From assembly GCF_003054445.1 (NCBI RefSeq), contig NC_042506.1, positions 1,433,501 to 1,497,500 of the forward strand: DNA of 64,000 bases, in the 5' to 3' direction. The position numbers and the translations under genes are program-made. A model generated the notes under the pieces. It was not told the DNA's origin, did not search any database, and saw nothing but the letters and a program-made list of their open reading frames with translations. Below, piece after piece: positions 26,928 to 64,000 of this stretch. How positions within the stretch are numbered: position 1 is the first letter of the stretch; each line of letters starts with the position of its first letter. The stretch is from Pichia kudriavzevii (Eukaryota > Ascomycota > Pichiomycetes > Pichiales > Pichiaceae).

Positions 26928-26998
26928 TGCGCAAGCCCGGAATCGAACCAGGGGCTTAACGATGGCAACGTTGAATTTTACCACTAAACCACTTGCGC
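26928..26998 (-). tRNA. tRNA-Gly (anticodon GCC)
   Basis: A 71-nt cloverleaf, nearly identical to S. cerevisiae tRNA-Gly(GCC). It has the acceptor stem GCGCAAG/CTTGCGC with discriminator A, A box TGGTTTAGTGG, anticodon GCC in GTTGCCATC, and B box GGTTCGATTCC. No intron. A run of T for Pol III termination follows on the minus strand (poly-A on plus at about 26916-26922). Confidence 0.97.
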
Positions 26999-33759: not shown

Positions 33760-33850
33760 TCCCTGTTAGCTCAGTCGGTAGAGCGTTCGGCTTTTAAGAT
33801 CTTCCAAGAAGTCGACCGAAATGTCCAGGGTTCGAGCCCCTGATAGGGAG
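33760..33850 (+). tRNA. tRNA-Lys (anticodon UUU) with 18-nt intron
   Basis: The acceptor stem TCCCTGT pairs with ATAGGGA, with discriminator G. A box TTAGCTCAGTCGGTAGAGC. The anticodon TTT is at 33793-33795 in the loop CTTTTAA. The B box is GGTTCGAGCCC. An intron at 33797-33814 sits one base 3' of the anticodon, the canonical position, and yeast tRNA-Lys(UUU) also has an intron there. The mature RNA is 73 nt. A T-run terminator follows at 33852. Confidence 0.96.
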
Positions 33851-40099: not shown

Positions 40100-43000
40100 C
40101 TAGTAGACATCCAATGTATCGTTTGTTTCATCGATACCAGCTATACCGATAATCTCGGTCAGTCTACTTCTTGCTTCAGCTATCATTCTTGGGGGTACCT
40201 TGGGAAACTGTTTATCCGCTTGTAAGGATCTTCTAAGCCATCTGACATTGATTACTCTATCCTTTTTATTCGTTTTCGGTAAATCAACTTCGTAGGCGTT
40301 GTCTGATATCTTCTTGACAACCTTGTAGGGTCCGTAGTATACCGGTTGTATTTTGTAATACAATCTATCACTACCGTATGCATCTTTGTGCAATAGTATC
40401 CAATCTCCAACTTCAAATGTCTCGTACACTCTCGACTTATTATGCTGTATTTCCTGGCTTCTTTGCGCTTCAATCATGTTTTCTTTCACATTTTCCATGA
40501 TGACTTTCATTTCTAATGCGAATTCTTCAGCTTTATTGCTGTACCTTCTACTTGAAACACGACTGCTAGAAATAAACATTGGCGAGTCTGGTAAGTAACC
40601 ATAGCAAACTTCAAATGGTGATGAACTTATCGAGACTTGATGGGAACTGTTGTAGGCAAATTCGGCCATTGACAACCATTTGTCTCAACTGTAGAGATCG
40701 TTACTCGCATAATTCCTTAGTAATTGGTTTAAGATTCTATTTTTTCTTCCACTCTGGCCATCTGTTTGAGGGTGATTAGTGGTTGAGAAGAGTGATGATG
40801 TACCAAGAATTCTATGTCATTATCTGAAACCATTCTTTTTGGAATCCCATGTAATTTAAAACAATTTTCTACCATCAATTTCGCACATTGCTCTGCGGTT
40901 GCAGTTTTCCTAGTGGGGATGAAATGTGCCATCTTCGTGAATCTATCCACCACTACCAAAATCATATCGTGTCCATTTTTGCATCTGGGGACACCTTTGA
41001 CGAAATCCAAACTGATGTCTGTCCATCTTCCTTCAGGAATTGGAAGAGGGGAAAATAATCCTCTTTGACCAGTTGTCTCGGGTTTGGTTTTCTGGCAAAC
41101 CGTACATCTTTGACAATATCCCTTCACGCTTTTTAGCATATTTGACCAGTAAAACATAGGGTGAAGTCTCATGTATGTTTTGAAATACCCGAAATGACCA
41201 GCAGAGTTACCGTCATGAGCGTTACCAATAATTTCCTGAACCAACTTAGACTTAGGGGAGACTACTATTCTTCGATCATTTTCTCCTTTAACCACCAAGA
41301 AATATAATAAATTATCCTCAATTGAATAATGTTTAGTGTAGTTATGGATTGACTTCGGGATCGACAAATTTTCTTTTAAAATGTCGTATATCTCCTTAAT
41401 TTCGTTGTCTTCTTCGTATGACTGGATAATCCGTTCTATCACTTCATGGTTTGGTGTTAACACCTATTTTATTGTGTTGATACTAACTTCATTTTCCTCG
41501 TCTGGGTACCTAGACAAAGCGTCTGCTACTGAATTAGTAGGACCTCAAGTATTGAATTTTGAAATCGTAATCAGCTAATCCTAGGAATGATTGAGCATCT
41601 TTGGCATTTTTCGGAATTGGCCAACTCTTGATTTTGTCTATCTTAGCAGGGTCAGTCTGGATACCTCTGCTTGAAATGAGATGTCCTAAGAAACCTAAGG
41701 TTTTGAAGTAAAATGAGCATTTCTTTTCTTCGCAATCAGCTTATTTCTCCTGAGCAATTCCAATATTTTTCTAATGTGACTGTAGTGTTCTTCGACAGTC
41801 TTTGAGTAAATTATAATATCATCCAGGTACACCTGAACAAATTGGTTCAAATAAGGTGCTAGAATCCTATTCATCATTCTTTGAAAAGTACTAGGGGCGT
41901 TGGTTAAACCGTAAGGCATCACAACCCACTCGTAGTGACCGTAATCTGTGGAAAATGCTATTTTTTCAATATCATCTTCTGCGATTCTGACCTGAAAGTA
42001 ACCTGACATCAAATCCAACTTGGAAAATACTGAAGCTCCTCCAAAAAATGTGATTAATTTGTCGATTCGTGGTATTGGGAACTTGTCTTTTACCGTATTG
42101 TTATTCAGTAACCCATAGTCAACACACATTTTCATACTACCATCTTTCTTCTGGAACAAGTAACAAAAAACTATTGAAAGAACTAGGGGCAGACTTGATA
42201 AAGGCTAGTTTCAACAGTTCATCAACCTGTTTATTCAGTTCTTGTTTCTCTGAATAGCTTGATTTGTACTGGCGTCTGTATGTACTCTTGGTAGGTTCAA
42301 TGAGTATAATTCTGTGAGTCAAATCCCTTTGGGGAGGTAAACTGGTGGGTTGGTCATTGGTCACCACATCTCTAAATTTTTCATGAATTTTATTTCTAAT
42401 TCCAACAACACCACCGTAAGGTTCTTCTAAAACATTATTATTTTCTTTTTCTTCAACTGACTGCACAAACACTAATAATGGATAATTATCAACATTCTTT
42501 AAATTTCTTCTGACTGCACGCATAGATTTAATAGCTATAAGTTCATTTTCTTTTGTTTCTTCTAAGTCATTTCCGTTATTTAATTTTATTTCTTTTTGAT
42601 ATCTGGGATTTCAGGAGTTTCCGTTTCCTTTTCGATATTTTCCCAGTCAACTTTATTTCCATGATCTTTAACAAATGGGAAACCTAATATCATTTTATGG
42701 TTGATATCCTCTAAGACTAAGAACCTAATATTCTCATTTTGCCATTCGTCTCTTAGCTTGAACTACAGTTTTGTTTTTTCTACTGAAGGTAGACTTGTAG
42801 CAATATTGTGATCAACTACCTTTATGGCCTCTAATTAGTTTATTTTCTTTGGCCCGTTTTTTACCACCATAACCAGCACTATATAATCTAATAAAATTTT
42901 AGCTCCATTTAAAACCTTCCAAGTTCCGACCAAGGCATAATCTGTACTTTATGTCGAGAAAGATAATTAAAACAGTAACCAATAAAACCACAGCCCTCTT

Positions 43001-43230
43001 TATCAGTTTCAAAGATGCCATTCAGGCCTAGTTAGCTGATTTATCAAATTCAGGATTTAGCTATTTCTAAATTTTGATAGTAAAGTTTATATTTGTTTTT
43101 GTTTAAAAGCGATCCCGCATGTCTATTTAGCTCAGTGTACAACTGATATTCCTGTAACTGTACCAGGTGATTTTGATTTCCATTGTCCTTCATATGTTCT
43201 TTTATATAGGCTCTTTCAAAAACGGTTCAA
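40100..43230 (-). mobile_element. Ty3/gypsy (Metaviridae) fossil A
   Basis: Minus-strand remnant of a Ty3/gypsy pol region, with a possible gag tail at its right end (about 43.1-43.2 kb). A reverse transcriptase part lies at about 41.7-42.5 kb with the YLDDIIIYS active-site motif. An integrase lies at about 40.1-41.46 kb, with an HHCC zinc region, a catalytic core containing DISLDFVKG, and a C-terminal GPYKVVKKI segment; no chromodomain is evident. Roughly five or more breaks. LTRs not found by eye, so the outer limits are approximate. It differs from fossil B in sequence, so it is a separate family or an old lineage. Non-functional. Confidence 0.85.
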
Positions 43231-46200
43231 CTGATAACATCACGATGGATATCTAAAGTGGAATTAATAGATCAAAGCAAGAGAGGATTTCCAAGGAATA
43301 GGGCAATTCTAGTATAGGAAGACTGTGGATTGTCGAGACAAACAAAAGTTGAGTTGTGAACCTTTTGTTTATGAGAAGTTCAATTCGCACTCCTTTTCTT
43401 TACAAGCTTGGGAATTCAGATAGAGATAATACCTACATCTACTGAATATTAAGTGAACCAAAAATCACTGTAACAGCACTCAGTCAACTAAAGTCGACTG
43501 TTTAAGCTCCTCTTTAGAAAGCCCCACTCGTCTCTAAATTAGTTTCTATGCTATAAGCATCAGAGAGCTCCTCTAAGAATGTAAGAAAAGTGAAAAGCTT
43601 CTTTTGGTCTGATAGTTTTTTAATTAAACAGTTCAGTAACAGAAAAACTCGTTTTGAGCTTTTCCTTGTTAATCCACGACTTTTGGATATACATTATATG
43701 CTGTAGGTCCTTTGTAATAACAATAGCTATTTTGGCATCGAGTTGTACAAGTTGACATTTCGTTTTATGTTGCTATTATTTAATAATATTAAGTGTTTCT
43801 TATCAAATGTATATAACCTTTGTCGGATGAATAACGAACCAAGTTACAAACCTAGCAATTGGACTCTTTCCGCTAGCCTTTGCTGGTTGACTTGAGAAGG
43901 TAGTTTTTCATGATAAGTTGCACCCTGGCCATCTCTATGAAAATCAATATTTCAATAATCTTATATACACTTATAATGAACGCGCATTACTCAGACAAAG
44001 AAACAAGGACTTCTTGGAATTCCAAGTTGTGGTTGTTCAATTGAATCTTTATGTTTGACTTCTTCTTTATCCGCTTTATAGAAAACTTCCTGGGACAACA
44101 AGGTTCGAACAAGAACATGAACAAGAACATGAACTTTTGCTCAATTAAACCCATTTGCTCTAATTCATTAATGAAGTGAAAAAATAGGATTGGAAAGGTT
44201 TTTCGCTAGAGAAATCGCTTTTCTCAGCAGTCTTAAGTATCTGGCAATCACTGTGGTTCCCTTTGGTTTCAAAGTGTACAATCGTTACCTCATAAAAGTT
44301 TTCAGTATGAATGAAATGATGTTTACTAGGGAACATAAACCATTGGGATCTTTCTAGACTTAAACTGCCTTTTAAAAGCTGGGCCTTCAGAAACGATTCA
44401 TCATAGGGAGTTTTGGAGCTTCCTTGGATGTGCTCCTTATGTAAACTATTCCTTAGTTCTCAAAAAAAAAAGCAAAAAGAACTGTAGTGATTTAACATCA
44501 TCTGTAGGAATCTTTAGCTACATCTCTTCTCAGTTTTGTTCAATATGACTTTGTTTTGGAGATTAGCCTGTTTCTAAAAGTAAACGTAGTTATGTTTCAA
44601 GGTGCTTTAGACAGCTTAGGGAGTGGATTTTCTGGAGATATGGCTTGCGCATGTCATGTGCCGAGTAGTCACCACGGGTCACCTCCTGGAAAAGTATAAA
44701 CACGATCTCAAACTCGATTGGTTCTGAAAGGTTTTCATATGATAAGCTAAAAAATGGTTTTCGCGTTAAAGCTAGAATTGTCTGATTTCCTTCATCGATG
44801 TGAAGTGATCCAGTCTGACCACGCATAAAATCCGGAATGGAAATCACACCAAAAGATGAGGAAATATCCAATTATGCTTAAATTGTCAACTCAAACACAA
44901 GATGTCGCAGCAAACATTTGACGGGCTTGTAGGCTTTAAAACCAAGAATTCTGAAATAAAAACAGTACTAATTAGAACTTTATCATGAAGACACATGTAT
45001 CATTTAATGCTCGACACCAGGTGATGACAAACAGCACCTCTCTGGTGAAAGGGATACAACAGTTCTGCCTTATCTATCTGAAAATAAAGGTGGAGTTTGT
45101 ATTAGGAAAGAAAAAACATCGAGTTTATGTTGATTCCTGATATTGTGAATGGAGTTGTACAATTTGATTAAAAGCCAGGTTTGAGTAGCATCCAACTAAT
45201 CTCTGGTGTGGCTATCAAACCAATGTGTTTTTGGAATTGATGCTGCATTCAACGTGTCAACATGCCAAGATTTTACGGCAAAAAACTATCAACCCTGAAA
45301 AAGATCTTGGTTGTGTGGGTGTTGACATATTGACAAGGATTGGGTGAGAAAGAAATAATATTAAGTGTAAACCGCAGCAAACAGTTTTGTCTCTCCATCA
45401 TACACTACATATTTGATAATGTTTTACTTGCCAATGATGAGGATATATTTGACAGTATCTATTATATCTTGTATGAGGCGAGATGGAAAAGAAAAGACTA
45501 TTAATCTAAGCTTTGACAGTATGTTACCTATATCGTTAGGGGCTGATATCGAACCAGTCTTTAATGTAAAAACCTTACTTTAAATTACTTAAATTCAAGA
45601 GATGGAAGAGATGGAAGAAACCACTGGAAAGGCTGAGCTTGATCAGACCAATTAAAAAAGACGGATATTTATCTCAGACAACTGACACTATACTATATAG
45701 AACACGGGATTATAGATGTGCTTAAAAACGAAGTAAAAGATATTGGGTACGAGCAGTTGTTGAGACCAAAGACGGCCACCAGCATCCATCCATTGAAAAG
45801 TCAAAACACTCAAAAGAAAAGAGTTACTGGTATTAGAAGCAGAGATTTATTTGAAATTATATTGTTGGAGCCAAAGTCTATAGTTCCAGATCAATGGAAA
45901 TTGGACAGTGTGTTTATTGGGTATAGAAAGAAATGTCTTATTTACGTCTATAATGTTGGGTTGTTCCCTGCCATAATTTGGTTGCTATCGTTAATATTAG
46001 TCATTGTTAAGCAGCATTGCTTAAATATACTTTTTCTATAACTATATGGCGGTTTATAGTACAACATTCTAAGGATTCTTGAACTTTGGAAATCACCTCT
46101 GGAGCTTTTAAGATGCATCAGCATGTCTCATTCATCTGCAATATATCATGTGACCATGCTTTATGCTCAGGGAGAGTAGGGTATTTAGGATTTGATGAAC

Positions 46201-46446
46201 CGTATAGAACTATAAAATTCTGCAACTATTCTCATGTTATATGCTGTTATATAAGCTCTACAAGTACAGATAACGCGTTTGCTTGAATTTTGTTCGTGCA
46301 GGAGTGTTTGTTATTTGATTAAGATGAGAAGAGAATCTATTATGTTTATCCTAAAGTTAGCCTAAATCTCGTTGCCCGAATGTTTACCGTGTAAAAGCTA
46401 CTTTTTTTACCACTTGGAGCATCATTTTAGGGTTGTTCTGTAAGCA
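43231..46446. other. Gene desert left of the inverted repeat
   Basis: 3.2 kb of AT-rich DNA. It contains one broken plus-strand gene at 45.6-46.04 kb (separate entry) and an unrecognised 93-codon minus-strand frame (44590-44871). The left repeat arm may extend further left into this stretch, but its partner lies beyond the window, so this cannot be tested here. Confidence 0.5.
45602..46041 (+). pseudogene. Broken unrecognised gene with C-terminal membrane span
   Basis: A short frame from ATG 45602 (MEEMEETTGKAELDQT) stops after 17 codons. An overlapping frame continues from about 45643 to 46041, with protein-like content: DQLKKTDIYLRQLTLYYIEHG, then a polar middle, then a hydrophobic C-terminal span (VGLFPAIIWLLSLILVIV). 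Conceptually this is one protein of about 140 residues with a frameshift near 45,640-45,650. I do not recognise the family; a subtelomeric or pericentromeric membrane-protein relic is a guess. It lies about 400 bp outside the minimum left repeat arm. Confidence 0.35.
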
Positions 46447-48905
46447 GCTTAAGGTTATGTAAGGTCAAGTTTTTCTTGCCATTAGGGGACTTAGAATTGT
46501 TGAGAGTTAAAGAAGAAACGTAGTGTTATGTTTATGTTGAGAAATTCAACATTGACCTGAAAAAGACCCTAGTACATTGACTTACATAAACTAAACTAGA
46601 TCATAATCGACAACGTTAGCTGGGAAGTTAGCTAGATTTCAACAAAAAACTTAGTATAAACAATAAGTAAACCTTATAAATTATTGTTTTTTTGCTCTCA
46701 GAGCAAATGGTAAGTTGCACGCCCTTATACATACGCAAAATACATTAAACTCTTATAGAAAAAAAAAACTTGTGCTCTTAAAGGTCGGCCTAACAATCTT
46801 GCAAATAGCTATTTGGGCCAATAACACAACAATGCTCTGATAATTCAGAAGAGTTCTGGTTGTTTGCAGAGGACTAGCCTCTTAATTATCAAAAGCATTT
46901 TGCCTGTTATTGTGGAACAATCATTAGCAATGTAATACATAAATCCTTTTGTTGCATTCTACTAAATTAAGCTGTTATTCACTCACATGACTCTACCCTT
47001 AGCAGCTGCTTGAATTCCATGTGTTGGATTTTCTTAGTATACGTTTCTACTAACTTCAGCAACGTCTAACCGTTTACCCTTATGCTTTGCATCAAATGAC
47101 GGAGTCTCTGCAGCCTTTTCTGGATTCAGCTTTGGACTATGTGATTGCTGTCCCTTATGTTCCAGTTTTTTTCTTTTCATTTATTTGTTCGTTACCTACC
47201 CGTCCTTGAGCATTTTCATCAAAAGAAATCCGTGTGTGACTATTCCTCTTATAGTACATGATTTAAATATATGAGACCCCCGTTAAAACAGCACTGTCTA
47301 AAGGATGCTTAAATAATAGATTCTAATCACCAACTTGTTTGTACTCTCAGTTCAATGGTCCCTCTATCAGGGCTGACTCACCATGCTTAATAAACATAAC
47401 GCTAATTTCAACATTATCCCACACATTGGAGTTTTTTTTTCCATCAAAAAAATAATATATAAATAGCTTTCTTAGATTAGTGTATTCTTTTTCGCCTAAT
47501 ATTTGTGATGAGCTAAAAGATAGATCGATAAGGTCTAGCAAGAAAAGAGTCATTTAGTTCTCAAAGGTAACTGTTTTTTTTTTTCATGTCACAATGACCA
47601 ATATTTAAAGTCGCTGATCTTGAAATTGCAAAAAAAAAAAGAAACACTATTCAACTAACACATACAACCTTTTTGTACATAAAAACAAGTAGCTTTTTCA
47701 AACAGCTACTTAAAATTCAGCTACATCGTGAAACTATTGGCTTTTCAGCTAGTTTGGTCCGACTGGAAACGTACGTCCTTTATAATTTTTTGTTGGACTT
47801 TTCTACTGGAGAATCTGAATTTCGAGACCAAGTATTTAATTATATGTCCAAAAAGAACGTAATAATCTGGAAGTACGTCTTTACTACTCAAATTTTCAAA
47901 CTTAATTTTACTGTGTGTATTGGATGAATCTTCCATAAATACAGTACTTTGTAAAACTAGAACTCTCTAAGATCCTGCATTTTCCCAGTTTAAAATATGT
48001 ACGGGTTGAAAACAGAAGAGTAATAGCCGTCTAACAAACTTTTGATATCCCTAAAGAAAACATTTCTACGACAATATTATTTGTAATATTGGATAGCTTC
48101 CATTTCCGATCTTTTGCCGCACGAAACTCAAATCAAAAACATACAATTTTTGTAATGCAATAATGTAATCTTGATAATTTCTAAAAAAAACACCCAAAAG
48201 GTTTCATTGATCCATTCTGTAGGAATAAATCAGAAAAAAACATGTGCTTCTTTCTAAACTTTATCAAAATATTTGTCAAGCTATAGTTTTTATAGACACT
48301 CTTCTTTTTTCTTTCTCTCCACAGTCTAATCTACCAAACATTTTCTTAGAGAGTTATAATAAATGTCAAAACTCTATACAGACAATTATGTATGACTGTT
48401 ATGCCTTTTCCTGAACTTATTTAAACAGTATGTTTCAGAAAACGTTTTGCGGCAAAGTCGAATTCGTGGTTCGCTTAGTTTATATTTCATGTGGAAGTCA
48501 TGTAAGCCTCTTGTTATAGGATAGTAAACGCCGGCTGTTTTAAACAGGAAGGCTATAGCTTAAGGAATATCGTGCATCCATAAAATCATTTCTGTAAGGG
48601 CTCATATATAAGAAGTTGACGTCAACGAAAAATCAATCAATAGGTGCAAATGGAACATTACGAAGTGATCTATCGACCAGCAAGAAAAGTTTGCACCTTA
48701 TGAGTATCCGGCAATTTCTCGGATTTTCATGTTTAGATCTCGTTGCAAATTTTCACTAAAGAGTGCTATGTCGAAACAGTGCTGAGGGTAATTTTTACAA
48801 TTACCTAGAGGGTAAGATTAGGTACTAAGATGTGATGTCACTTTCAGAAATAGTGCTCACTTAAAGTTGTGTAACTGGCGATGGTTTCATTCGAAGCAAA
48901 CTATA
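46447..48905 (+). repeat. Left inverted-repeat arm, outer part
   Basis: Reverse complement of 61548-64000, with coordinates summing to about 110,446-110,453 throughout. By eye I noticed about ten substitutions or single-base indels over 2.46 kb, hence roughly 99.5% identity. Open frames of 68 codons (47347-47553, minus) and 84 codons (47673-47927, plus) occur identically in the right arm; the identity reflects arm homogenisation, not selection on proteins, and I do not call them genes. The partner sequence is cut by the window end, so the arm may extend left of 46447. Confidence 0.95.
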
Positions 48906-50969
48906 GTACATGTGCATTTAAACCAGAAAGAGTACGATTCTTTTTAACTTTTGAGCATCTTTCATGATTGATCCGGCATAGTTTCGTTATCAGATTCAAC
49001 ACTGTAGATAGTTAACAATAGGCCAATTTCAGGATCAGTATTCATTTCTGATTGTTTGACAGCTATATTAAGACCTATGTTCTGAGTTAAGCACAGAAAT
49101 AACAATTAAAATTTATATCAGCATTAGTTATGGAAGACACCCTCAGTCATCATGGCACCAAAACAAAGATTAATAAGAAACCAGTTCAACTCCAACTGAA
49201 TCTATTGATATCGATCTATATAATTTGTGGATTCTTTTTAAGTTATCCAACTGCTGGACTAAATATGGGCATCACGTCAGGAATTGTGCCTCTTGAACAC
49301 CAGTTTTTATAGAATTTACAGCTACTATAAATATCTACATTGTGGCATAACGCTATTCCTTAACCACTGTTCTCCAATGTCAACTCATCTAGTATTTTTT
49401 ATATAAAATATCATTTCTTATTTTGTTCGCGCTGTTTGCAAAGAAATTTGTTTTACTATCATAAAATTGATTAATTTGTCTCCCAAGACCTTTTACATGT
49501 ATATCATTACTATTAATGTGCTTATTCGATAGTTATCCGCATATATTCTGAGTATCATCATACTTCGCTGGAAGTTTTCCAATATATAATTTATTTTTTA
49601 GGTTCTATCGTTTTATTTACATATATATCAATGTTGTTTATTTATTGTTGATATTGAATAACTTATAAATCCATTAAAAAGGATATTGCATAATTCTCAC
49701 TATTTGGTTCTCAATGAACAGAACTTATAAATATACTTGAAGTTATTGTTTTAGTTTTCTGTATACAGTAACATTCCTAAATTCATTTAGTAAATTGAAA
49801 TTATGCCATAAATAAGTTTATCGACTCAGAGACAGCTTTATAAAGATATTCCTAATCCTCTTACTAATAAAACAAAAGTTGCATTCACTATTTTTCTGGG
49901 AGAGTCTGATTCATTTTTGTTTTTGCTCAGGAAATTTAATCGTGTTATAATATAAAAGAAGAATTTTCCTCAAGAGTACTCTTAGACATATTTATGGAGA
50001 ATGAGTTTGTTTGCCTGAATGGTAAAGTAGCTAAGAATCTATACTTTTTTCAGGGTTTTTTTTATATTGACTTAATGATTGGAATAATAAATCAGATTTG
50101 TAAAAAAATTGACGGAATTAGTTTGAGTGGCTTCCCATGTAAATATGCTCTCTATCAGATATATTAAACATGAAAATTTATTATACCTCATTGTACTCTC
50201 GACATTAGTTAAATCTCCAAGTTCTTCCTGGCGCAATATATTTATATAATCATAATGGAGCTAATGAAAAGAATCTTGCTCAAGCTTGCTATCTATTTTT
50301 TGACTACTGGATTTAGCGAAATATAAGGTTATTGCTTTACAGAGGCCTTTACAAGATGGATACTCATGAATATTAAGAGAAGCTAGATTTGCGTACTTTA
50401 TTAATGGTAGAATCTCTTAATAACAAGTATTCTTTAGTGATGAGCTAAATAAAAATTATACGTCAAATAAATGCTACACAAATTTAGTTCTTGAGAGAAT
50501 AGGAAATGTAGAGCTCGAGAAAATCGCATGAAAAGATGAAAAATGTTACGGTTGTTTATTAATCCCATTTATTTTTGGGTAACTGTTTCTTATTTTCCTA
50601 ATATTACTAGAAAAATATAATCCAGAAAGATGCTTTTGAGTTGGTTCCAGCCATGGCATCAAATATCGAAGGATTTTCTAATTAGCTCTATTTGACTAAA
50701 GCAAAACGAGAAAATACTCATCGTGTTTGTGATAGATGAAACACCTATTTTGCTTCTATTGTATTTAAGGAAATTAGAAGGTCCACTTCAACATCTAGTT
50801 GGGCCACAACCTTTCTGAATAATGCTTCTTTACCTGGTACTATAATTAGCAACCTTATACGGAATCTGTTAATGCGCACGTGCCCGAAACAAAATGTGTC
50901 AATACATTACCTTCACTTATACATTTATATTTTGTGCATGATATTTGGTTATATCTTCTAGTATCTCTT
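48906..50969. other. 2,064-bp segment present only in the left arm
   Basis: In the right arm the sequences matching 48905 and 50970 are directly joined (around 61544-61548). The segment is AT-rich, with one 60-codon frame (49130-49312) and no recognisable transposase, LTR or terminal repeat. It is either an insertion in the left arm or a deletion from the right. Short TATA/TAAATA microhomology at the junction fits a deletion equally well. Confidence 0.85.
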
Positions 50970-51146
50970 TAAATAGTTTTGTTACACCCAAGGTGACTGA
51001 ATATTCGTACCAAACAGTCCTCTAATTCATTGCTTGGGCTTCTAGACATGTCGTATGAGTCTGAGTAGTGAAAACATACGATTTACAACCCGCCCTTTAC
51101 TATTTCGCTATACACATAGGTATTGCCTGACATTATAGCATATGTC
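50970..51146 (+). repeat. Left inverted-repeat arm, inner part
   Basis: 177 bp matching the reverse complement of about 61367-61543 with about 19 differences, mostly transitions (about 89-90% identity). This is far more diverged than the outer arm. Homology fades at 51146. Confidence 0.85.
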
Positions 51147-54100
51147 GAAGTAAATATTATGGAATTTTTGTATTAATAATTTTTATTTCAAAGTAATGTG
51201 ATTTTCTAAGAGTTTGGTCAACAACGGGATCAAACAAGTAGTAAATATCCAAAGTGCTACTTTTCATTAAATTTTTTTTTTCCATTATTGACAAATCTTT
51301 TTCTTTGCACAAACAGTTCCATTTTTAAAGCATCAGGAGCAAGAACTCTTTAGCCGCTGCTTTTCAAGAGGCTGCAGGAATTTGTTAGTGTCCTTGTTCA
51401 AATGAAGAATACTAACTTCAAACGAGGAGACCTAGTTCAAAGAATTACTATTATTGAAATTGTTCAATATACATAGCTTTTGCCCTTTATATCGTACTGT
51501 ACATTTGCAAAGTTTTCAAACTAGGAAGCAGACCGTCTCTTGACTCTGTTTACAAAACCCGAAGCTATCTTTTTTAATTTTCCCTTTATGCGTAATACAA
51601 AACCTGGAAAAATAACGAGAAGTTTTTGCAATATTCGAAACTTTGCAAATTAACCCGGTCTGCAATATTTTTTGAGCAGCTTTTCACTGTTAGCTTTACT
51701 CTCTTCATTTTTGTAAACATAATGATGTCTTTAATGACTAGAAGGGGAACTTGTTATTATCGTAGCGCCACTTATCTCTACTATATTTCAGTAGTGAAAC
51801 TTTAGCCAGACAAAATTGTCCTAAACCTTTGGGATTTGTTAAAATCCCCTTTGAATTTCGTTTAACTATAAGTAATTATCCGAAGTCTACATTTACTATC
51901 ATCCATTTTTATATTGCCAAATACTTGATAGAAACTATAGATAGCTATGAAGTCTTCAACAAATCGATTTTTTCCTCATAGCTTTCTTAATAACTTGCTG
52001 TTATATATTGTAATCCCAAAATATGAAATTGTTGATTATAGCGCCCAGCTTCAAAGCCTTGACAAAAATACTGGAAATGATGCGTAAACCATTGAGCTTT
52101 GTTTTGAGAATCTTCTTTTTGTTCTTTAGAATAAAAGGAAATAACTGTTTATATTATTCTTAACAGAAGGAAAAAGAAAGAGTTGTCAACGCGTACATAT
52201 TTGTATAATAAAAGCTCCTTTTCAATAAACGTCTAAGGCGGAACTGATAGTATATTCATGCTTGAAATAATTACTTTCGGGCTATTTCCGTCCATAAAGC
52301 GTCTCTAGAGGCCAGCATTTAACTTCTTATAAAATCAAAAATGGATTACTCTTACGTGATTTAATCACCAGCTCATGGAGGTCTTTTTTTTCAATTGGGT
52401 GCTGTTTAGTAAAAAAGTTAAGTTATATTTCCAGGCGACTTTAAGAAGGCTTCGCCTACCAAACACTAACCAAAACAAATAACAGAGACATAGACCAGCG
52501 GTATTCTCTCTTTTGCCTTATGCGTGAATTACTTAACCTTGCCTCGATGTAAGCTCTATCATTTTGAACATGTTTTTTTATGTTTTTACACAGACCCAAT
52601 TTGATAAACTATAACTATATGTACACTTTATAAGCCATTGATTTTAGTGTAAACGAGATCGAAAAAGAAACAGATGCTCCTCGGTAATTTCACAGAAGTC
52701 AATATCTGTTTTTTTTTTGTACAACAATCAAGGAAAAAGTGGTTCACCGGTTTCAAATGCCAAATGCTAGAATTTGAGCGCCGAGTTTCATATTATATGA
52801 AGTTAGGTAATTCTAAAAAGTCTTTTTGCAAAATTAAGTATAAGTTTCCAAAGTACTTCGAAAATAACATTCAGCGGCGTGCAGAGACATTAGGTAAAAG
52901 TAGTCGTTTCTGGCCAATGGTATATATATTTTGATGGTTTGAAATATTTTCCTCGGTTGTTCAATTAGAAGAGTTGAATTGGGGTGTAAAACAGTATAAC
53001 ATACCTACTGATGTTATCATAAACATAATTTCCAACTCAGTAATATTTGTTTTTCTAAGAAATAGTGTATGTTCCACTTACAAACTCGACTTAAACAATT
53101 ATACTGTCGCTTAACAAAACCAGTAGTCTTTGAACTTTTTGCAAGGATAAAGTGTTTTTTTGGGAATATATTTAGACTTGAGTTTCAATGCTCTGAAAAA
53201 GGCTATCACTTTCCTATCAAGGCAGAGAACAACTACATATAGAGAAACAACATAAGTTAATGAGCATATATCAGCATCTTTGATTTAAACAGCTCTAGTA
53301 TTGGAAGCAAAAATAAAAAATATTACTGTTTTGTAGCCTATATAATGCTTGCCTACAAAATGTTTTCTGTCATAATTGTAAAAAGTTGTTTCGAATGGGC
53401 AAGCTAAGTCCCATGCCTTTTTATTTACATCAGGAATATCTTTTCCGCTTCTCTAGAGAACGAAAAGTCGTGAGCGTCATAGGTGCAGCAGAAAAATAAA
53501 AAGTCAGTAGATTGAGTAGATTTTTGTTTACTTTCCCTTGAGTACTTGCGCCCACTCAATGAGAGTTAAAGCAACTGATCATGCTGATTCTGATTGTTAA
53601 GAGAGATAATTTAAACATTGGTGAATCGAAATGCGAACATCATTATGAGCCAAATGAAGCCAAACAGACTTGATCAGGCAACCTGTCAAAATTAAGGAGT
53701 TAGTATTTACTAATGCATATGGTTGTGTTTATATTTCTTAGCATTCAAAAAGTGCACCCGTCCTTGGATATCTAGCTTAGTAGACACATGATGTTCCCTA
53801 CAAGTATCAGATTATTGCCTTGCTTAATTTAGTTTTTATGTTGTATTATATAAGTTCTTTACAAAACTCCATTTTAAATACTTCCACATAGATTTCCAAA
53901 GTAGAGTTAATACTTGTCAATATTTCCTAGTAATAACAATATCTATACCTCTCTCATCAGATTCGAGAAAATAGGAACGTTCTATGTATTATAATCATGA
54001 TTACTTTGTTGATATCAAGCTTGTTCGTGTTCTTGGATCGATTTGGCATTGTGCATTAGGCTTTGACGTAGTGACAAAGCTGCTTGGTTGAATATTCTTT

Positions 54101-57100
54101 CAGGCACCTTTCTTGCTAGAGTTTGATCACAGTCTTTCCACAAGACATCATAAGTCTTTTCCTTGCCTGATTCTTCTGACCATCCACCGATACCAGTCAT
54201 TTCGTTGATTCTTGCCAACATCTCACGCTCTGTTCTAGGCGGTTCCTGGTAAATATTGGGGTTTTCTTTATAGTATTTAATCCACTGTACATTTGATTCA
54301 CGATCCTTCAAATTAATAACCAGTAAATCGACTTCATAAGCATTGTCGTTTATTTTCTTGACTAGTCTGTATGGCCCATACTATACTGGTTGAATTTTTA
54401 TGTACCTTATATTCACACCAAAGGCATCTTGATGCACTAACACTAAATCACCAACTTTATATTCAAAATATCTTCTTTTTCTATTATGGTGTTTTCCTTG
54501 TTGCCCTTGCGCTTTACAATATTATCCAGTGTTTGCTGTAAAATCAATTTCACACGTCTCACAAATTCTTCTGCGTTAGGTGAATATTTGTTATCCTCCA
54601 AATCCCAGCTATTTACTTTTTTTAATCATGTTCGATTCATACCCGTAGGCGATTTCAAAAGGACTTGCTTTAATGGAATCTTGGTACGTTGAATTGTAAC
54701 TAAGTTCACACATAGATAGATGTTCATCCCAGAATAATTGATCGTTTGAAGAATATTTCCGAAGTAACTGATTAACAATCTTGTTGACTCTTTCGGTTTG
54801 ACCATCAGTTTCTGGATGATCAGTAGTCAAGAATAGTAGAGAACTACCATTGAGATAATGTAATGTCTGCCAAAACTTATTCATAAACCGAATATCTTTG
54901 TCACTAAACAAACGAGCACATGCAGCAGCATTAAGTCTTTTGTGCGCTGGTATAAAATGTGCCATTTTTGAAAAGCGATCGACAACAACCATGATCATAT
55001 CGTAACCTGTTCTCGATCTAGGTAAGCCTGTAATGAAATCCATCGTAATGTCGGTCCAGCGACCTGTTGTGATTGGTAAAGGGGAAAACAACCCTTGTCT
55101 TCTTCTGGTGTTAGTGTTGTGCTGTTGACAGATATGGCAGGTTTCTACCCATTTTTGATTTGTCTCAACATAGATGACCAATAAAAACTATCTTTAAGAT
55201 TCAAATAAGTTTTCCATGCACCAAAGTGACAAGCATCTTTGGAATCGTGTGCATTTTTGAATATTCTATACGGTAGTTTCTTGTAGTTTGGAATAACTAC
55301 TCTAAAGAAATCTTGAGACTCTAATGTCTTATAATAACGTACCTCATCTTGATAACAGAAATGTTTGATATGATTTTTTATCTCAACTGGAACTTTTGTT
55401 TTCTCTCTCAAAGTTCTGAATATCAAGGCATAATTAGTATTTTTTTTATAACCCGTAATAATTTCTTTTTTTAACTCTTGATTGGCTTCGATAGTACCTA
55501 GTGTCAAGGAATGTCTCTGTGTTTCATCCTCCTCTTTTTACGTCAATTCCAGCAACGCCAATTCGATTTTGGCTAGCGTTAACCTGTTTTAGTGGTTGTA
55601 TGGGTATCTAGATAACGCATCAGCAGCGGAATTGTTTTTTCCCTGTAAGTAACGAATATCAAAATCAAACTGTGGTAAAAAGTCCATCCATCTAGCCACT
55701 CTAGTGGAGTCTATGAGATTTTGGTTTTTTAAGTAAATTAAACTCTTGTGATCCGTCATAACAATGAAATGTCTTCCCATGAGATAATATCTCCATGTTC
55801 TTAATGCTTCAACAACAGCCATAAATTCACGGTCATATATTCCATAATTCAGTTGACTTCCAACTAGCTTCTTTGAACCGTAAGCAATCACACCTCGTCA
55901 TTTACCTGTTTCGTCCAACTGTTCTAGAGTATAACCTAACGATACTCCACACGCATCGGTATGTAGAACAAATTTACAATTGCCTGACCAACTTGGGTGC
56001 ACCAAGGTGGGACTTGATATCAAAGCGTTCTTTAGTTGATTGAAGGCTTCGTCTTGTTCACTTGTCCATTTACTTTGTTTTGTCATGAACTTATGAATTG
56101 GATTGGCAATTTTGGAATGCCCTTTAATAAACCTTCTATAGTACGAAGTTAAACCAATAAAACTTTGTGCTTCTTTGATCGTGTTTGGCGTTGGCCAACT
56201 CTTTACCTTTTTAATTTTCTCGAGAGCGGTTTGAATACAAATTGGTGTAATAACATGTCCTAAAAACCTAAATTCTTGATAAAAGAATCGGTATTTCGAC
56301 TTCTTCGTGATTAGTTTATGTTTTCTTAGTGTCGACAAAACTTCTTTCACGTGCTTACCGTGAGTTTCAACATCTTCGGAGTATATAAAAATGTCGTCTA
56401 AATACACTTGGACAAATCCATTTATTTTTTTAGACAAGACATTATTCATCATCTGTGGAAAAGTCGCAGATGCACTTGTTAGTCCAGCCGGCATTACCAT
56501 CCATTCATAATGGCCAAAGTAGAAAAAGCCGTCTTCTCGACATCTTCATCCGCAATTCTCACTTGGTAGTAACCAGGCATCAACTCTAACTTAGAATAGA
56601 CTTTTGCCTTACCAAATCTTGAAATCAATTGATCAATATCTGGAAGTGGAAACTTGTTCTTAACAGTATTATTGTTTAGAATCCTATAATCAACACACAT
56701 ACGCATAGTACCATCTTTCTTTCTAACAAATAGCACTGGACTGTTAAAGGATTTGGAACTAGTTTTGATGAAACCTTGTTTGATTAAAACTTCAACTTGT
56801 TTTGTTAGTTCCTGTTTCTCAGAGAAGCTTATTGGGATTTGTATTCATGGGTTAGTTAATATTATCAGGGTTTTCGACTTCGTCAACATCAATCGAGTAG
56901 ATAAAAGTGAGATAGGATTCATTTCTCCTAACTAACTTATTAACGTACTTTTCTTGATATTGAGTGAAACGCTCGATAGAGGTGGATTGATATTTAAACC
57001 AGTTGATTTAATGGCATCAACACTCATTAAAAAAAAAAATTTGAAATTAATTTATTGACACTTAGTCAATAGAGTTCCCAATATGAATATCTGGTGGTCA

Positions 57101-60100
57101 CTGACCAACATGTAAAGCGACTTAATATCACTTATATTAATAGTTTCATTGACGTCTTTTCCAAATGGAATAGCTATAAAACCAATAACAATAGGATTTT
57201 TGATAATTGACGCTATTCGAGGATTACCAAATTAACACTTTTTTTGCCCTGCATGATTCACAAGCATTTTAACATCATTTCCTTTGTTATGACTATTATG
57301 TGAAGAATAGTAGAAAACTGAATTATTTATGCTATTAGGATTTGCTGGTGGCTTAGTAAAACTAAAAAAAACTTGAATTTCTTGCCAACTTAAAATTATT
57401 ATAAGCAGCTTTTTAGGTCCATCAGGAGCCATGAATTTACTATTTTTGTCTCGTTCCTATTTTTTTAAAGTTGTTGGACCTTGGTCTGCGAGGGATGCCA
57501 TTCAAAATACAGATATAATCAGGCTTGTAGACTATCTTATCTCTGTATCTCTCATGGAAGCGCACTAAAATTTCGGAAACGGAAATAGCACCTAGGGTCT
57601 GTTGTAACAATTCCGTATTCCTCATTCCTTGTTCAATTGTACTAAAATATTGAGCAATAGTAGGTTTCTCTTCAGCAACATCGAAAATAGTAGATATAGG
57701 TACCCTAAGTTCTTCCTGCGAGCTCTTCGTTGGTTGATCTGACTTTCTTCTACACATAAATTTGATGATTTCCGTTTCGTGGCTTGTTTTTCGCAATAGA
57801 AACAAATGTTTTTTTAATTTAGCTTTAGAATTGTGTCAGCATTCTTTCAGTAAATCTTTATCAGTTAATTTAGTGGGGGACCTCTCAGAACCTTTTTTTT
57901 TTTTCAGGGTGATAACAGCGCATATAACCTTCTTATCATATGATAACCTACAATATTCATAATATATTCTAATTTGTGATAACCATTCCATTGCCGCGGC
58001 TCTTCCTTTTAACGAAAGCAGTTTGCTAACATTCAGCAAAAGTTATTTTTTTACTTATAAACATGTCGAGCATGCCTTTTTCTCTTGGCTGTTTGTGCAC
58101 ACTGCAGCCTTAGTTCATTTTATCATATATTTATGTCTTCCTGGTCGTTGTGTTCTCAATATATCCCTCTACAATCACCATATTAGTTTGGATGTTAGGA
58201 AGTTGAATTGTACTAACTTGTTATCTTTATCTAATAAGAAGTCGAACATTGCAGGTACTACGTACTTGTTGGTTAATCTTTAAATTTTTTTTCTTTCTTT
58301 TAGTTCATTGTTTCTAGATCTAAATAGAAATCATTCCATTGCTGTTTGCATGTTCTTTTCAGTTTACTTACTTCCATCTATTATTCTTATTGGCCCATTC
58401 CATCTTCTCCTATTAGAATGATTCTGCCAACTAGACTATGCAAAAAGTACATGTAGCCTAGTAGTGGTAAACACGTATGACTTTTCACTAGGACCAGTTC
58501 ATTCTTTTGCTCTTCTTCGTTTCTTAGTTATAGCCTCCATGGTTGACCGCAGAATCATATAACTTCAAGCTATGAAGGTAACGCGGCGTTCTATACAATA
58601 CATTTTTATATAACCCACTGATAGTTAAATACCTGCCTACAGCAGAACCATTTATGATATAAATTTTGGATCAGTGTTTAAAGATGCTTTGAATGATCTA
58701 AAACTTATTTCTGCCAATCTAAATGAAAAATCCGCCATATTATAGTTGAGTGACAGCCTAGTCCTTAAATCGCGTCTTTAAGTTTCTTCACATTTTTTGC
58801 CTTCACAAATATAAGCACATCATTTCACCGTATGTTTTTTGTTCAAAATACTGAGTCGTGCTGCAGGGAATTCATCTACAATCCTAACAATCTAAGTTTG
58901 TTAACTCCTATATACTATTCCATTCGTTAATTTTATTTTATTTTTTCTAAAACATATTAGATGGTGCGTAAACGATGTTTATCTTAGTAAATGGCTAATC
59001 AAAAGTATCTTATTTGCATTGAATAGAAAAAAGTTTAGGAAATTATTTAAACTTCGTTCATAGACAAGCTATATGTTCTTATTTATGTAGAGAAGTTATA
59101 AGCTAATTATTTTTTTCAGCCATTATAAGTTTAAGCATATAACTGTGTTGAAAGCCACTAAATAAGTGATAAAAAAAATCAAAAGACCTACTAGTATACA
59201 GAGTTAATTCTACATTTGCTACCCTAATTATAAAAAGAAACTATCGAGGTATTTCTGTATTTCTTCTGAACAATTGGGGTTTTAAGTCTACCTACTTCTA
59301 AACCTTGATCATAGATACAATAGGTGCACAACACATACACGGTGTGTGGTATATTATGAGCAGCCAATTCACCATTTTGAAAAGCTAAAACTCTGTACCA
59401 TAACTTTCAGTGGGATCCGTATTATCAAAACTATATTTAATAATCCTATGTGCTAACTAAAGCCTGGAAGCTGTATATATATAGTTTAGTTTTAATTCAT
59501 AAAGTTTTTTCATTGGACTGCCGGAATGTCATGGGCCTTTAAAACATTCACTGCTTAACTGGTGTAGATTCTTTGTTACACTGTGCATTGTTACTCGTCT
59601 TTCGTGTGAATTTCCCATCTCTATTCTAATACCTGTATTTTTCTGTTTAGATTTTGGACATTGAGTTACACTACTCGCTTATATTTGTTGTAGCTAGTTT
59701 GAACTGAATCCTGGAAGTTTATTATCTTTTTGTGTTCTCACACCACTTGCCAAGAGACTTGAGCCTGAAAAAAAAGAATGAGTTGAAAAAAATGTAGGTT
59801 TTACACAATTTTAATCATTTTTCTTAAGTATGAATATCAGCTGTCTTGTAAGATGTTTTCCATCAATAAGCTGAACTCACTTTATAGAGCACTGAATTTC
59901 ATTTTTGTATAACAATTGGTTATTTCCTTTCAGTCTGGCACTCGCTTTTATTCATTTTCCTAATAAATAGCTAATTCTGTTTCGATCAGGACTTCTAACT
60001 GTAGTGTGTACGACATCTAATTCTAGAAAGGGTATTCTCACTTCCTAGTTAAGATGTGTATCATATTCTTTTATAAAACTAAAAGCACCTAGCCTATTGA

Positions 60101-61366
60101 GTTTATAATACTGAAAGTCTACTGAACTAGTCATCTTTGTACATTTCTTTAGACTTAGATCCAATCTTGTTGCTTTAGTTTATTTTCTATATAGTTATTT
60201 GAATTAATCACAAGTATCTAACAAAAGGTCCATACTTACCGATTTGTGTAGTAGGATTTTTCTTCTATTTCTTTGTAGGTAGTAGTGTTTCTAGGGGAAA
60301 CCTTTCAAATTGGCCCTTCTGAGTCTATTCTAGTTTGAAAAAAGCAAAGTTCTCACTAAATAACACATATTAATAATAGTCTTTGCTACGGAACTAATTA
60401 TTTCTTGATCTAAACTATTTTTGCTCCTGAATAGAAGGACCTAGTTAATTTTTATATTAGGGCAGAAGAAATCAAAGAAAGAAGTTGAATAAAGAATAGG
60501 TATATTTGTACTAAAGTTTGCTAAAAGCGATTTAGGTGGAGCTTCTTTTTATTTAAAAACCCCAATAATCTTAATAACAATAAAGGTCTTCCTGTAAACT
60601 TTTGAAAAATGTACCGGAGTATTTAAGTTAAGTCCAAACCACGAGAATAGGTCAAAAGCTGCTACTTAGTTTATATTTCATTGCCTTTTCAGTATCTCGA
60701 GACTTCTCCGCTGTCAATAATAAACAGTTGTCTAGCTATTTTGTTTAGGTTGGGTAAAAACCTACGGAAAGACAATAGGAGCTTAGACTATCTATTGATA
60801 GATCAATTATTTGTTTTAAGAACTATAGAATTAAAAACAAGGCAGTAGTTGTAGATTTTAAAGATTATTTAGAGTAGATAGTAAAGGCTGTACTGAATAT
60901 CAATGAGGATTTGCAGAACCAACAAGTGGCCTGCATCAAGCTATTTAAGTGATTCTATTGGTATTTTACTAGAAAAGGAAAGCTAATCATTTTTCCAATG
61001 ACGGTTCATATAATCCAAGTTTTAAATGGTTTGCATCATCATAATAGGGGTATCTAAAAGGCATAAATCGACGAAAGTGATAAAAATTACTTATTAAACG
61101 ACGTATTTACATCCACGTTTTTGCTGGAAGTACTGAATCTGCCTACTGCTAGTTTGGGGAAGACAATAATACACAAAATAAAGACGATGATGAAGATTCC
61201 AGTTTTTTTCAAAGATAAAAAAATAGATATATATGTATAATTGTATGAATAGTTTTAATAATAACTTATGTTGCTATTTTGATAGCAATTCATTTTACTA
61301 TTGAAAAGGTTACCCAGGCAAATAATATGTTTAGCACATCAGATTCTGTACTAATAATAATATAGA
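51147..61366. other. Core between the repeat arms
   Basis: 10.2 kb of unique, AT-rich DNA with the gypsy fossil B in its middle (54.0-58.04 kb). The flanks 51.15-54.0 and 58.04-61.37 kb hold only chance-length frames, such as an 86-codon frame at 52674-52934 with no known domain. No tRNA, tandem array or protein gene seen. Likely the kinetochore-binding core if the centromere reading is right. Confidence 0.65.
54015..58039 (-). mobile_element. Ty3/gypsy (Metaviridae) fossil B inside the core
   Basis: Minus-strand remnant with most of the internal region of a Ty3/gypsy element in order: Gag (about 57.4-58.04 kb), a poorly preserved protease zone, reverse transcriptase (about 55.9-56.74 kb, YLDDIFIYS), RNase H (about 55.6-55.97 kb, TDHKSLIYL), and integrase (about 54.6-55.5 kb, zinc region then ITMDFITGLPRS and TDGQTERVN) with a C-terminal part to 54.0 kb. 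About eight breaks. LTRs not recognised by eye. Degraded and old. Distinct from fossil A. Confidence 0.88.
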
Positions 61367-64000
61367 GTTATGTTATAACGTCAGGCAATACTTATGTGTA
61401 TAGCGAAATAGTAAATGGCAGATTGTAAACCGTATGTTTTTACTACTCAGACTCATACGATATGTCTAGAAGCCCAACCAATGAATTAGAGGACTGTTTG
61501 ATATCAACATCCAGTCACTTTGAGTGTAATAAAACTATTTATATAGTTTGCTTCGAATGAAACCATCGCCAGTTACACAACTTTAAGTGAGCACTATTTC
61601 TGAAAGTGACATCACATCTTAGTACCTAATCTTACCCTCTAGGTAATTGTAAAAATTACCCTCAGCACTGTTTCGACATAGCACTCTTTAGTGAAAATTT
61701 GCAACGAGATCTAAACATGAAAATCCGAGAAATTGCCGGATATTCATAAGGTGCAAACTTTTCTTGCTGGTCGATAGATCACTTCGTAATGTTCCATTTG
61801 CACCTATTGATTGATTTTTCGTTGACGTCAACTTCTTATATATGAGCCCTTATAGAAATGATTTTATGGATGCACGATTTTCCTTAAGCTATAGCCTTCC
61901 TGTTTAAAACAGCCGGCGTTTACTATCCTATAACAAGAGGCTTACATGACTCCACATGAAATATAAACTAAGCGAACCACGAATTCGACTTTGCCGCAAA
62001 ACGTTTTCTGAAACATACTGTTTAAATAAGTTCAGGAAAAGGCATAACAGTCATACATAATTGTCTGTATAGAGTTTTGACATTTATTATAACTCTCTAA
62101 GAAAATGTTTGGTAGATTAGACTGTGGAGAGAAAGAAAAAAGAAGAGTGTCTATGAAAACTATAGCTTGACAAATATTTTGATAAAGTTTAGAAAGAAGC
62201 ACATGTTTTTTTCTGATTTATTCCTACAGAATGGATCAATGAAACCTTTTGGGTGTTTTTTTTAGAAATTATCAAGATTAAATTATTGCATTACAAAAAT
62301 TGTATGTTTTTGATTTGAGTTTCGTGCGGCAAAAGATCGGAAATGGAAGCTATCCAATATTACAAATAATATTGTCGTAGAAATGTTTTCTTTAGGGATA
62401 TCAAAAGTTTGTTAGACGGCTATTACTCTTCTGTTTTCAACCCGTACATATTTTCAACTGGGAAAATGCAGGATCTTAGAGAGTTCTAGTTTTACAAAGT
62501 ACTGTATTTATGGAAGATTCATCCAATACACACAGTAAAATTAAGTTTGAAAATTTGAGTAGTAAAGACGTACTTCCAGATTATTACGTTCTTTTTGGAC
62601 ATATAATTAAATACTTGGTCTCGAAATTCAGATTCTCCAGTAGAAAAGTCCAACAAAAAATTATAAAGGACGTACGTTTCCAGTCGGACCAAACTAGCTG
62701 AAAAGCCAATAGTTTCACGATGTAGCTGAATTTTAAGTAGCTGTTTGAAAAAGCTACTTGTTTTTATGTACAAAAAGGTTGTATGTGTTAGTTGAATAGT
62801 GTTTCTTTTTTTTTTTGCAATTTCAAGATCAGCGACTTTAAATATTGGTCATTGTGACATGAAAAAAAAAAACAGTTACCTTTGAGAACTAAATGACTCT
62901 TTTCTTGCTAGACCTTATCGATCTATCTTTTAGCTCATCACAAATATTAGGCGAAAAAGAATACACTAATCTAAGAAAGCTATTTATATATTATTTTTTT
63001 GATGGAAAAAAAAACTCCAATGTGTGGGATAATGTTGAAATTAGCGTTATGTTTATTAAGCATGGTGAGTCAGCCCTGATAGAGGGACCATTGAACTGAG
63101 AGTACAAACAAGTTGGTGATTAGAATCTATTATTTAAGCATCCTTTAGACAGTGCTGTTTTAACGGGGGTCTCATATATTTAAATCATGTACTATAAGAG
63201 GAATAGTCACACACGGATTTCTTTTGATGAAAATGCTCAAGGACGGGTAGGTAACGAACAAATAAATGAAAAGAAAAAAACTGGAACATAAGGGACAGCA
63301 ATCACATAGTCCAAAGCTGAATCCAGAAAAGGCTGCAGAGACTCCGTCATTTGATGCAAAGCATAAGGGTAAACGGTTAGACGTTGCTGAAGTTAGTAGA
63401 AACGTATACTAAGAAAATCCAACACATGGAATTCAAGCAGCTGCTAAGGGTAGAGTCATGTGAGTGAATAACAGCTTAATTTAGTAGAATGCAACAAAAG
63501 GATTTATGTATTACATTGCTAATGATTGTTCCACAATAACAGGCAAAATGCTTTTGATAATTAAGAGGCTAGTCCTCTGCAAACAACCAGAACTCTTCTG
63601 AATTATCAGAGCATTGTTGTGTTATTGGCCCAAATAGCTATTTGCAAGATTGTTAGGCCGACCTTTAAGAGCAAAAGTTTTTTTTTTTCTATAAGAGTTT
63701 AATGTATTTTGCGTATGTATAAGGGCGTGCAACTTACCATTTGCTCTGAGAGCAAAAAAACAATAATTTATAAGGTTTACTTATTGTTTATACTAAGTTT
63801 TTTGTTGAAATCTAGCTAACTTCCCAGCTAACGTTGTCGATTATGATCTAGTTTAGTTTATGTAAGTCAATGTACTAGGGTCTTTTTCAGGTCAATGTTG
63901 AATTTCTCAACATAAACATAACACTACGTTTCTTCTTTAACTCTCAACAATTCTAAGTCCCCTAATGGCAAGAAAAACTTGACCTTACATAACCTTAAGC
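61367..64000 (-). repeat. Right inverted-repeat arm (continues off the window)
   Basis: Reverse complement of the left arm: 61548-64000 pairs with 46447-48905 at about 99.5% identity, and 61367-61543 pairs with 50970-51146 at about 90%. It lacks the 2,064-bp segment of the left arm. Copies of the same two chance frames are found at 62519-62773 (minus) and 62893-63099 (plus). The repeat is still near-identical at base 64000. Confidence 0.95.

What the first reader, a model, noticed from the sequence alone, without database searches (positions are those of the whole stretch)
46447..64000. Large near-identical inverted repeat around a gene-free core: candidate regional centromere
The outer arms (2.46 kb visible) are about 99.5% identical in opposite orientation and enclose a core of about 10.2 kb without genes but with a retroelement fossil. 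The whole lies in a gene desert of more than 33 kb. This matches the arm-core-arm plan of K. phaffii, C. tropicalis and S. pombe centromeres. In Pichiaceae this would be a centromere with arms much longer than those of K. phaffii (about 2 kb).
Basis: partly seen in the sequence, partly recalled or inferred. Interest (0 to 1): 0.9.

Follow-up and report, generated by a model that had tools for sequence, protein, structure and literature searches.

The report
Known inverted-repeat centromere of a yeast
The window holds most of the chromosome 1 centromere of the yeast Pichia kudriavzevii (Candida krusei), a gene-free stretch between two mirror-image arms that was predicted in print in 2018, so the finding is right but not new.

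Summary
The window lies in a 10.79 Mb, five-contig genome that matches P. kudriavzevii CBS573. The inverted repeat is larger than reported: the left arm is 39365-48905, the mirrored arm runs 7 kb past the window's end, and both are 9.54 kb and 99.8% identical around a 12.6 kb core. The total, 31.7 kb, equals the shortest centromere in Douglass et al. 2018. One such structure was found on each of five contigs. Function is still inferred from sequence; four paper searches found no CENP-A map for this species.

Details not in the passages I read: (1) an 884-bp element (60663-61546) is full length in all five centromeres, and 11 of 11 genome matches lie inside centromeres; (2) CEN1 reads A-B-a and CEN2 b-A-B, two phases of one mirror chain; (3) a diverged 195-bp inverted pair in CEN1 marks an older arm end whose right side lost about 2.1 kb; (4) arm differences are clustered in CEN2 and CEN5, as tract-wise gene conversion predicts; (5) a sugar-transporter gene is mirrored outside CEN1 and repeated near CEN4. 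The genome also encodes a CENP-A candidate, CENP-C and Argonaute.

The parts
39365..48905 (+). complete left arm (IRL) of the inverted repeat, 9,541 bp
   Evidence: C1:1472865-1482405 against 1495042-1504583, 99.79%
48906..61541 (.). central region (MID), 12,636 bp, GC 0.327
61542..64000 (-). visible part of the right arm (IRR); it continues 7,083 bp past the window
39690..42762 (-). Ty3A-type remnant in the left arm (block T), with an integrase fragment at 40100-40669
   Evidence: SH3_Tf2-1, Integrase_p58_C; six full-length relatives elsewhere
39255..39633 (.). LTR-like dispersed repeat; the outer arm boundary at 39365 falls inside it
   Evidence: (dispersed copies at 77-85%)
50965..51159 (+). 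left copy of the diverged 195-bp inverted pair, read as the inner end of an older arm
   Evidence: pair I4, 86%
61352..61546 (-). right copy of the diverged 195-bp inverted pair
   Evidence: pair I4, 86%
50568..51142 (+). U1, 575-bp block with a match in all five centromeres
53969..56556 (-). Y, Ty3-like remnant with a match in all five centromeres (reverse transcriptase fragment 55898-56500); a 90% copy lies outside centromeres at C1:1691405-1693286
60663..61546 (+). U3, 884-bp element matched only inside centromeres, at least one full-length copy on each chromosome
28784..30433 (-). sugar transporter gene outside the arm; mirrored at C1:1510093 (+); close copy near CEN4 at C4:358830 (-)
33760..33850 (+). 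tRNA gene between the transporter and the left arm

Best explanation
This is the regional centromere of chromosome 1 of P. kudriavzevii, a gene-free 31.7 kb arm-core-arm region. Shown here: the anatomy, one such structure on each of five contigs, near-identity of the two arms of a chromosome, and sharing of modules between chromosomes. Inferred: CENP-A (Cse4) nucleosomes occupy the core or part of it; the inverted arms help to establish or confine them, as was tested in C. tropicalis; the arms are kept alike by gene conversion within a chromosome; modules pass between chromosomes by recombination among clustered centromeres, which would explain why CEN1 reads A-B-a and CEN2 reads b-A-B.
For: Identity: contigs C3, C4 and C5 have the lengths printed for chromosomes 3, 4 and 5 (2.542, 1.384, 1.289 Mb), C1 and C2 are 9.5 and 11 kb shorter than printed; six full-length Ty3A relatives lie one on C2, two on C3 and three on C4, the published pattern. 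Structure: one large inverted repeat in each of the five stretches fetched (29-70 kb each), cores 8.07-18.27 kb, totals 31.72 kb for CEN1 and 37.78 kb for CEN2, the printed extremes. In print: called centromeres because of one large IR per chromosome and no genes; loss of heterozygosity is least frequent at them in 32 strains (passages). Kinetochore genes: a 170-aa CENP-A candidate at C2:528922 whose best solved relative is S. pombe Cnp1, just ahead of H3 (145.3 against 141.3 bits), and CENP-C, 80.7 bits. Homogenisation: the CEN5 arms have no mismatch in nine 1-kb bins (4-12) but 65 in the outermost; CEN2 has 23 of its 61 mismatches in one bin and 21 in another.
Against: No CENP-A or Hi-C data for this species were found; PMC12711049 marks Douglass 2018 (its reference 31) as based on bioinformatics only. 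The CEN3 arms match CEN1 only weakly (65-78% over short stretches) and no CEN1 block at the cut-off. The element common to all five lies in or at the edge of the core on four chromosomes but in the outer arms on CEN2, so core and arm carry no fixed sequence. Exact identity of long arms can also come from assembly.
Confidence: 0.93

Rival explanations
1. A mating-type switching locus: in methylotrophic yeasts the MAT region can be inverted by recombination between flanking inverted repeats (recalled; PMC6692504 seen only in the listing).
For: Pichiaceae use inverted repeats for this purpose (recalled), and recombination between the arms here would flip the core.
Against: The core holds no ORF of 120 aa or more outside the Ty3-like remnant, and such structures occur on five contigs.
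Confidence: 0.01
2. A graveyard of Ty3-like elements in a gene-poor region, made into inverted repeats by recombination, with no segregation function.
For: Ty3-type remnants lie in all five structures; arm ends of CEN2 and CEN5 lie 22-23 nt from tRNA genes, where Ty3 elements integrate (recalled); the CEN1 outer boundary falls in an LTR-like repeat.
Against: One structure on each contig fetched, at the place where loss of heterozygosity is least frequent in print; full-length Ty3A relatives lie elsewhere without such structures being reported; blocks A, B1, B2 and U3 are not recognisably transposon-derived.
Confidence: 0.04
3. An assembly artefact: a false inverted duplication.
For: Arms are nearly identical and longer than many reads; long-read assemblies can misplace such arms.
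Against: The arms differ at 20 places in CEN1 (17 mismatches, 3 gaps) and have different flanks; all five structures have different ends and contents; the paper reports the second strain CBS5147 as collinear apart from some Ty3A elements.
Confidence: 0.02

Closest known systems
Centromeres of P. kudriavzevii CBS573 (Douglass et al. 2018, PMC6053246; abstract, one section part and passages read)
   Different: The passages read do not name an element common to all five, the A-B-a against b-A-B phasing, the older 195-bp pair, the clustering of arm differences, or the mirrored transporter genes. Its S1 and S2 dot plots were not seen and may show some of this.
Candida tropicalis homogenised inverted-repeat centromeres (PMC4741521 and PMC7292649, passages read)
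   Same: Core flanked by near-identical inverted arms, shared between chromosomes.
   Different: There: 2-5 kb arms and 2-5 kb cores, CENP-A mapped, arms shown to be needed for new CENP-A loading on plasmids, a repeated 12-bp motif in the arms. Here: larger, no CENP-A map, the core of one centromere is the arm of another, and no comparable repeated 12-mer shared by CEN1 and the CEN3 arm.
Komagataella phaffii centromeres (Coughlan et al. 2016, not held; described in PMC6053246 and PMC12711049)
   Same: One inverted repeat per chromosome, same yeast clade.
   Different: About 2 kb IR with a 1 kb centre and no homogenisation between chromosomes.
Schizosaccharomyces pombe centromeres (recalled; size comparison in PMC6053246)
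   Same: Arm-core-arm plan and size of centromeres 1 and 2.
   Different: S. pombe arms are RNAi-directed H3K9-methyl heterochromatin (recalled); here Argonaute is present but the search for an H3K9 methyltransferase domain was uninformative.

Membership tests
Homogenised inverted-repeat regional centromere | Long near-identical inverted arms around a core | tested here: met
   9.54 kb, 99.79%
Homogenised inverted-repeat regional centromere | No protein genes inside | tested here: met
   10 of 10 ORFs of 120 aa or more lie in Ty3-like remnants
Homogenised inverted-repeat regional centromere | One per chromosome | tested here: met
   One large IR in each of five fetched stretches.
Homogenised inverted-repeat regional centromere | Sequence shared between chromosomes | tested here: met
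   CEN1-CEN2 20 kb at 98.1%; block map. CEN3 arms are an exception.
Homogenised inverted-repeat regional centromere | CENP-A binding | not testable with these tools
   needs ChIP; a CENP-A candidate gene exists
Point centromere of the S. cerevisiae type | CBF3 protein Ndc10 | tested here: inconclusive
   0 matches for PF16787, but no control genome rang
S. pombe-type heterochromatic arms | Argonaute and RNase III proteins | tested here: met
   Piwi domain 252.7 bits, best named solved relative KpAGO; 3 RNase III loci, one or more of them probably not Dicer
S. pombe-type heterochromatic arms | H3K9 methyltransferase (Pre-SET) | tested here: inconclusive
   0 matches for PF05033, but no control genome rang
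MAT inversion locus | Mating-type genes in or beside the core | tested here: not met
   no ORF of 120 aa or more in the core outside the Ty3-like remnant; genes with introns or shorter frames not excluded

The most novel reading that the evidence does not exclude
The 884-bp element U3 (60663-61546) is a sequence-specified centromere determinant: the one non-transposon module kept on all five chromosomes, confined to centromeres, and indifferent to whether it sits in a core or in an arm. P. kudriavzevii would then hide a DNA-defined kinetochore seed inside what looks like a large epigenetic inverted-repeat centromere. Centromere-wide gene conversion and common descent explain the same facts.
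Probability: 0.12. Interest if true: 0.7.

Novelty: already known. Interest (0 to 1): 0.3.

Why it matters
[quoted passage not shown] cerevisiae CEN did not help). A short element shared by all five centromeres gives a small, testable candidate, and the A-B-a / b-A-B phasing gives a concrete record of how inverted-repeat centromeres rearrange while staying functional.

Tried and rejected
MAT inversion locus, assembly artefact and plain transposon graveyard were considered (see rivals). A search for a short repeated motif shared by CEN1 (Ty3 blocks left out) and the CEN3 arm, like the C. tropicalis IR-motif, found no 12-mer with at least 3 and 2 copies and only four A-rich 10-mers, of which three are as common in control DNA. 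Pre-SET and NDC10_II searches returned nothing, but their controls were silent, so they prove nothing. One search (core against own genome) listed no CEN2 match to the core outside Ty3A although CEN2 is 98% identical over 20 kb: its list is a lower bound. The invariant 97-nt run in U3 (61211-61307) is longer than in 5,000 of 5,000 column shuffles, but shuffles ignore gene conversion, so it is a lead and not proof of constraint. Paper searches for an experimental CEN map; for a plasmid CEN; for Argonaute in the species. Cao et al. 2020 (Metab Eng), which I recall as reporting a centromere-like plasmid sequence for this yeast, is not held; whether it overlaps U3 is unknown. Coughlan et al. 2016 is not held under the id tried.

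Full report
Observation. The inverted repeat is real and larger than described. Within the window the arms are 46447-48905 and 61542-64000. The window is G000:C1:1433501-1497500 of a 10,791,929-bp genome in five contigs. Fetching the contig past the window and aligning it to itself gives arms C1:1472865-1482405 and C1:1495042-1504583, 99.79% identical over 9,543 columns with 17 mismatches and 3 gaps, and a core of 12,636 bp; the whole is 31,719 bp. In window terms the left arm is 39365-48905 and the right arm starts at 61542 and ends 7,083 bases beyond the window. Chance is excluded: 17,254 positions start an inverted 50-mer, against 0 in each of three shuffles. All 10 ORFs of 120 aa or more in the structure lie in Ty3-like remnant blocks.

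Identity. The host is P. kudriavzevii CBS573 or a near-identical assembly. Contigs C3, C4 and C5 (2,541,747, 1,383,544 and 1,289,138 bp) have the lengths printed for chromosomes 3, 4 and 5, and C1 and C2 are 9.5 and 11 kb shorter than printed (Table 1 of PMC6053246). Six full-length relatives of the Ty3A remnant lie on C2 (one), C3 (two) and C4 (three), as the published list of intact PkudTy3A elements has it.

Already in print. Douglass et al. 2018 (PMC6053246; [quoted passage not shown] CEN1 here (31.72 kb) and CEN2 (37.78 kb) are the printed extremes; the cores of C3 (8.07 kb) and C4 (18.27 kb) are the printed extremes of core size. PMC12711049 (passages) counts this work among those based on bioinformatic analysis only. 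Four searches found no CENP-A or Hi-C map for the species, in a library that lacks most subscription journals.

One structure per contig. The visible arm matches six places, all in centromeres: C1 twice, C5 twice, C2 and C4 once. C3 was found through the core. Self-alignment of the fetched stretches shows one large inverted repeat in each: C1 99.79%, C2 99.43% (12.7 kb), C3 99.31% (at least 10.1 kb), C4 99.88% (at least 7.4 kb), C5 99.11% (13.4 kb). The fetched stretches cut off the outer ends of the C3 and C4 arms.

Module map. With blocks named along CEN1 and lower case for inverted: CEN1 = T A1 A2 | A3 U1 B1 Y B2 U3 | a2 a1 t. CEN2 = u3 b2 y b1 u1 | T A1 A2 A3 | U1 B1 Y B2 U3, with short ends of U1 and A3 at the junctions. 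CEN5 = Y .. A2 A3 U1 | B1 t B2 U3 | u1 a3 a2 .. y. CEN3 has u3 b2 y in its core and arms without a block match; CEN4 is rearranged. C1:1475068-1495041 and C2:1469845-1489710 are collinear over 20 kb at 98.1%. So CEN1 mirrors A around B, and CEN2 mirrors B around A. In CEN2, CEN3, CEN4 and CEN5, U3 runs into an inverted U1; in CEN1 only the last 195 bp of that junction is left (pair I4, 86%) and about 2.1 kb of the right arm (the rest of u1 and all of a3) is missing, as comparison with CEN5 shows. Inference: all five descend from one arm-core-arm unit with a core of about 10.2 kb, later re-phased by recombination or template switching between inverted or non-homologous centromeres.

A shared element. 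Blocks present in all five at high identity are U1 (575 bp), Y (2,588 bp, Ty3-like, with a 90% copy outside centromeres) and U3 (879 bp). U3 searched against the whole genome gave 11 matches from 11 scored candidates, all in the five centromeres: six full-length (C2 has two) and five of 173 nt in U1. Between chromosomes the copies are 91.5-98.9% alike; 785 of 898 columns are invariant; the longest invariant run is 97 nt (window 61211-61307), a length reached in none of 5,000 column shuffles, although shuffles ignore gene conversion. It sits in or at the edge of the core on C1, C3, C4 and C5 but in the outer arms on C2. No counterpart of the C. tropicalis repeated motif was seen.

Homogenisation. 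Mismatches between the two arms of a chromosome: CEN1 evenly spread at 1-3 per kb; CEN3 1-8 per kb; CEN5 none in nine successive kilobases but 65 in the outermost kilobase; CEN2 mostly in two bins (21 and 23 of 61). This fits conversion in tracts of several kilobases of different ages, though assembly could also make long arms look identical.

Boundaries. The outer arm ends of CEN2 and CEN5 lie 22-23 nt from tRNA genes, and the CEN1 outer boundary lies in an LTR-like repeat. Ty3 integrates just upstream of tRNA genes (recalled), so element insertion at tRNA genes probably supplied the homology at which arms end. CEN1 itself holds no tRNA gene inside the repeat; in the fetched parts of the five structures I count six of the 17 tRNA matches inside the repeats.

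Pericentromere. A sugar-transporter gene lies on either side of CEN1 in mirror orientation (92% identical proteins; DNA 91.8% over 1.68 kb), and of its four closest relatives in the genome, itself included, three lie beside centromeres (C1 twice; C4:358830, 95%, about 9 kb from the CEN4 arm as aligned), the fourth at C2:1911758, 85%. A further 2.1 kb next to it is shared between the CEN1-left and CEN4-left flanks at 83.8%.

Proteins. A third H3-like gene at C2:528922 encodes a 170-aa protein whose best solved relative is S. pombe Cnp1, narrowly ahead of H3: the CENP-A candidate. CENP-C is at C2:890502. Argonaute is at C1:2340124, three RNase III loci exist, and two ORFs carry chromodomains. 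Pre-SET and NDC10_II searches were uninformative.

Mechanism. Shown: anatomy, distribution, homogenisation. From other work: in C. tropicalis, CENP-A loading on plasmids needs the arms, their inverted order and their sequence (PMC4741521, passages), and recombination between clustered centromeres is proposed (PMC7292649, passages). Inferred here: the same kind of arm-assisted CENP-A loading. Verdict: right, real, already published; the added detail is modest.

Noticed in passing
window 36232-37582 (-): Broken copia-type (Pol_BBD, E 1.1e-5, 26.1 bits, just under the cut-off of 27) retroelement remnant outside the left arm; the 2018 paper lists only Ty3-like families and says Ty5-like elements are absent.
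   Followed up: partly
window 28784-30433 and C1:1510093-1511742, C4:358830-360476: Close copies of one sugar transporter gene flank CEN1 on both sides and lie near CEN4; an older, outer mirror of the centromere or a pericentromeric gene family.
   Followed up: partly
G000:C1:2340124-2341080; RNase III at C2:1137785, C4:1264599, C3:86154: Argonaute and RNase III genes: an RNAi pathway may exist, so long inverted repeats could feed it.
   Followed up: partly
window 26927-26999 and 27016-27432: tRNA-Gly with an LTR-like repeat starting 16 nt away; the same repeat lies at the outer arm ends of CEN4 and CEN5.
   Followed up: no
G000:C1:1519620-1520711: Tandem repeat array of about 1.1 kb right of CEN1.
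   Followed up: no
C2:1490789-1491435 and C5:1094492-1095138: Arm end with two adjacent tRNA genes shared by CEN2-right and CEN5-left at 98%, a sign of exchange between centromere flanks.
   Followed up: no
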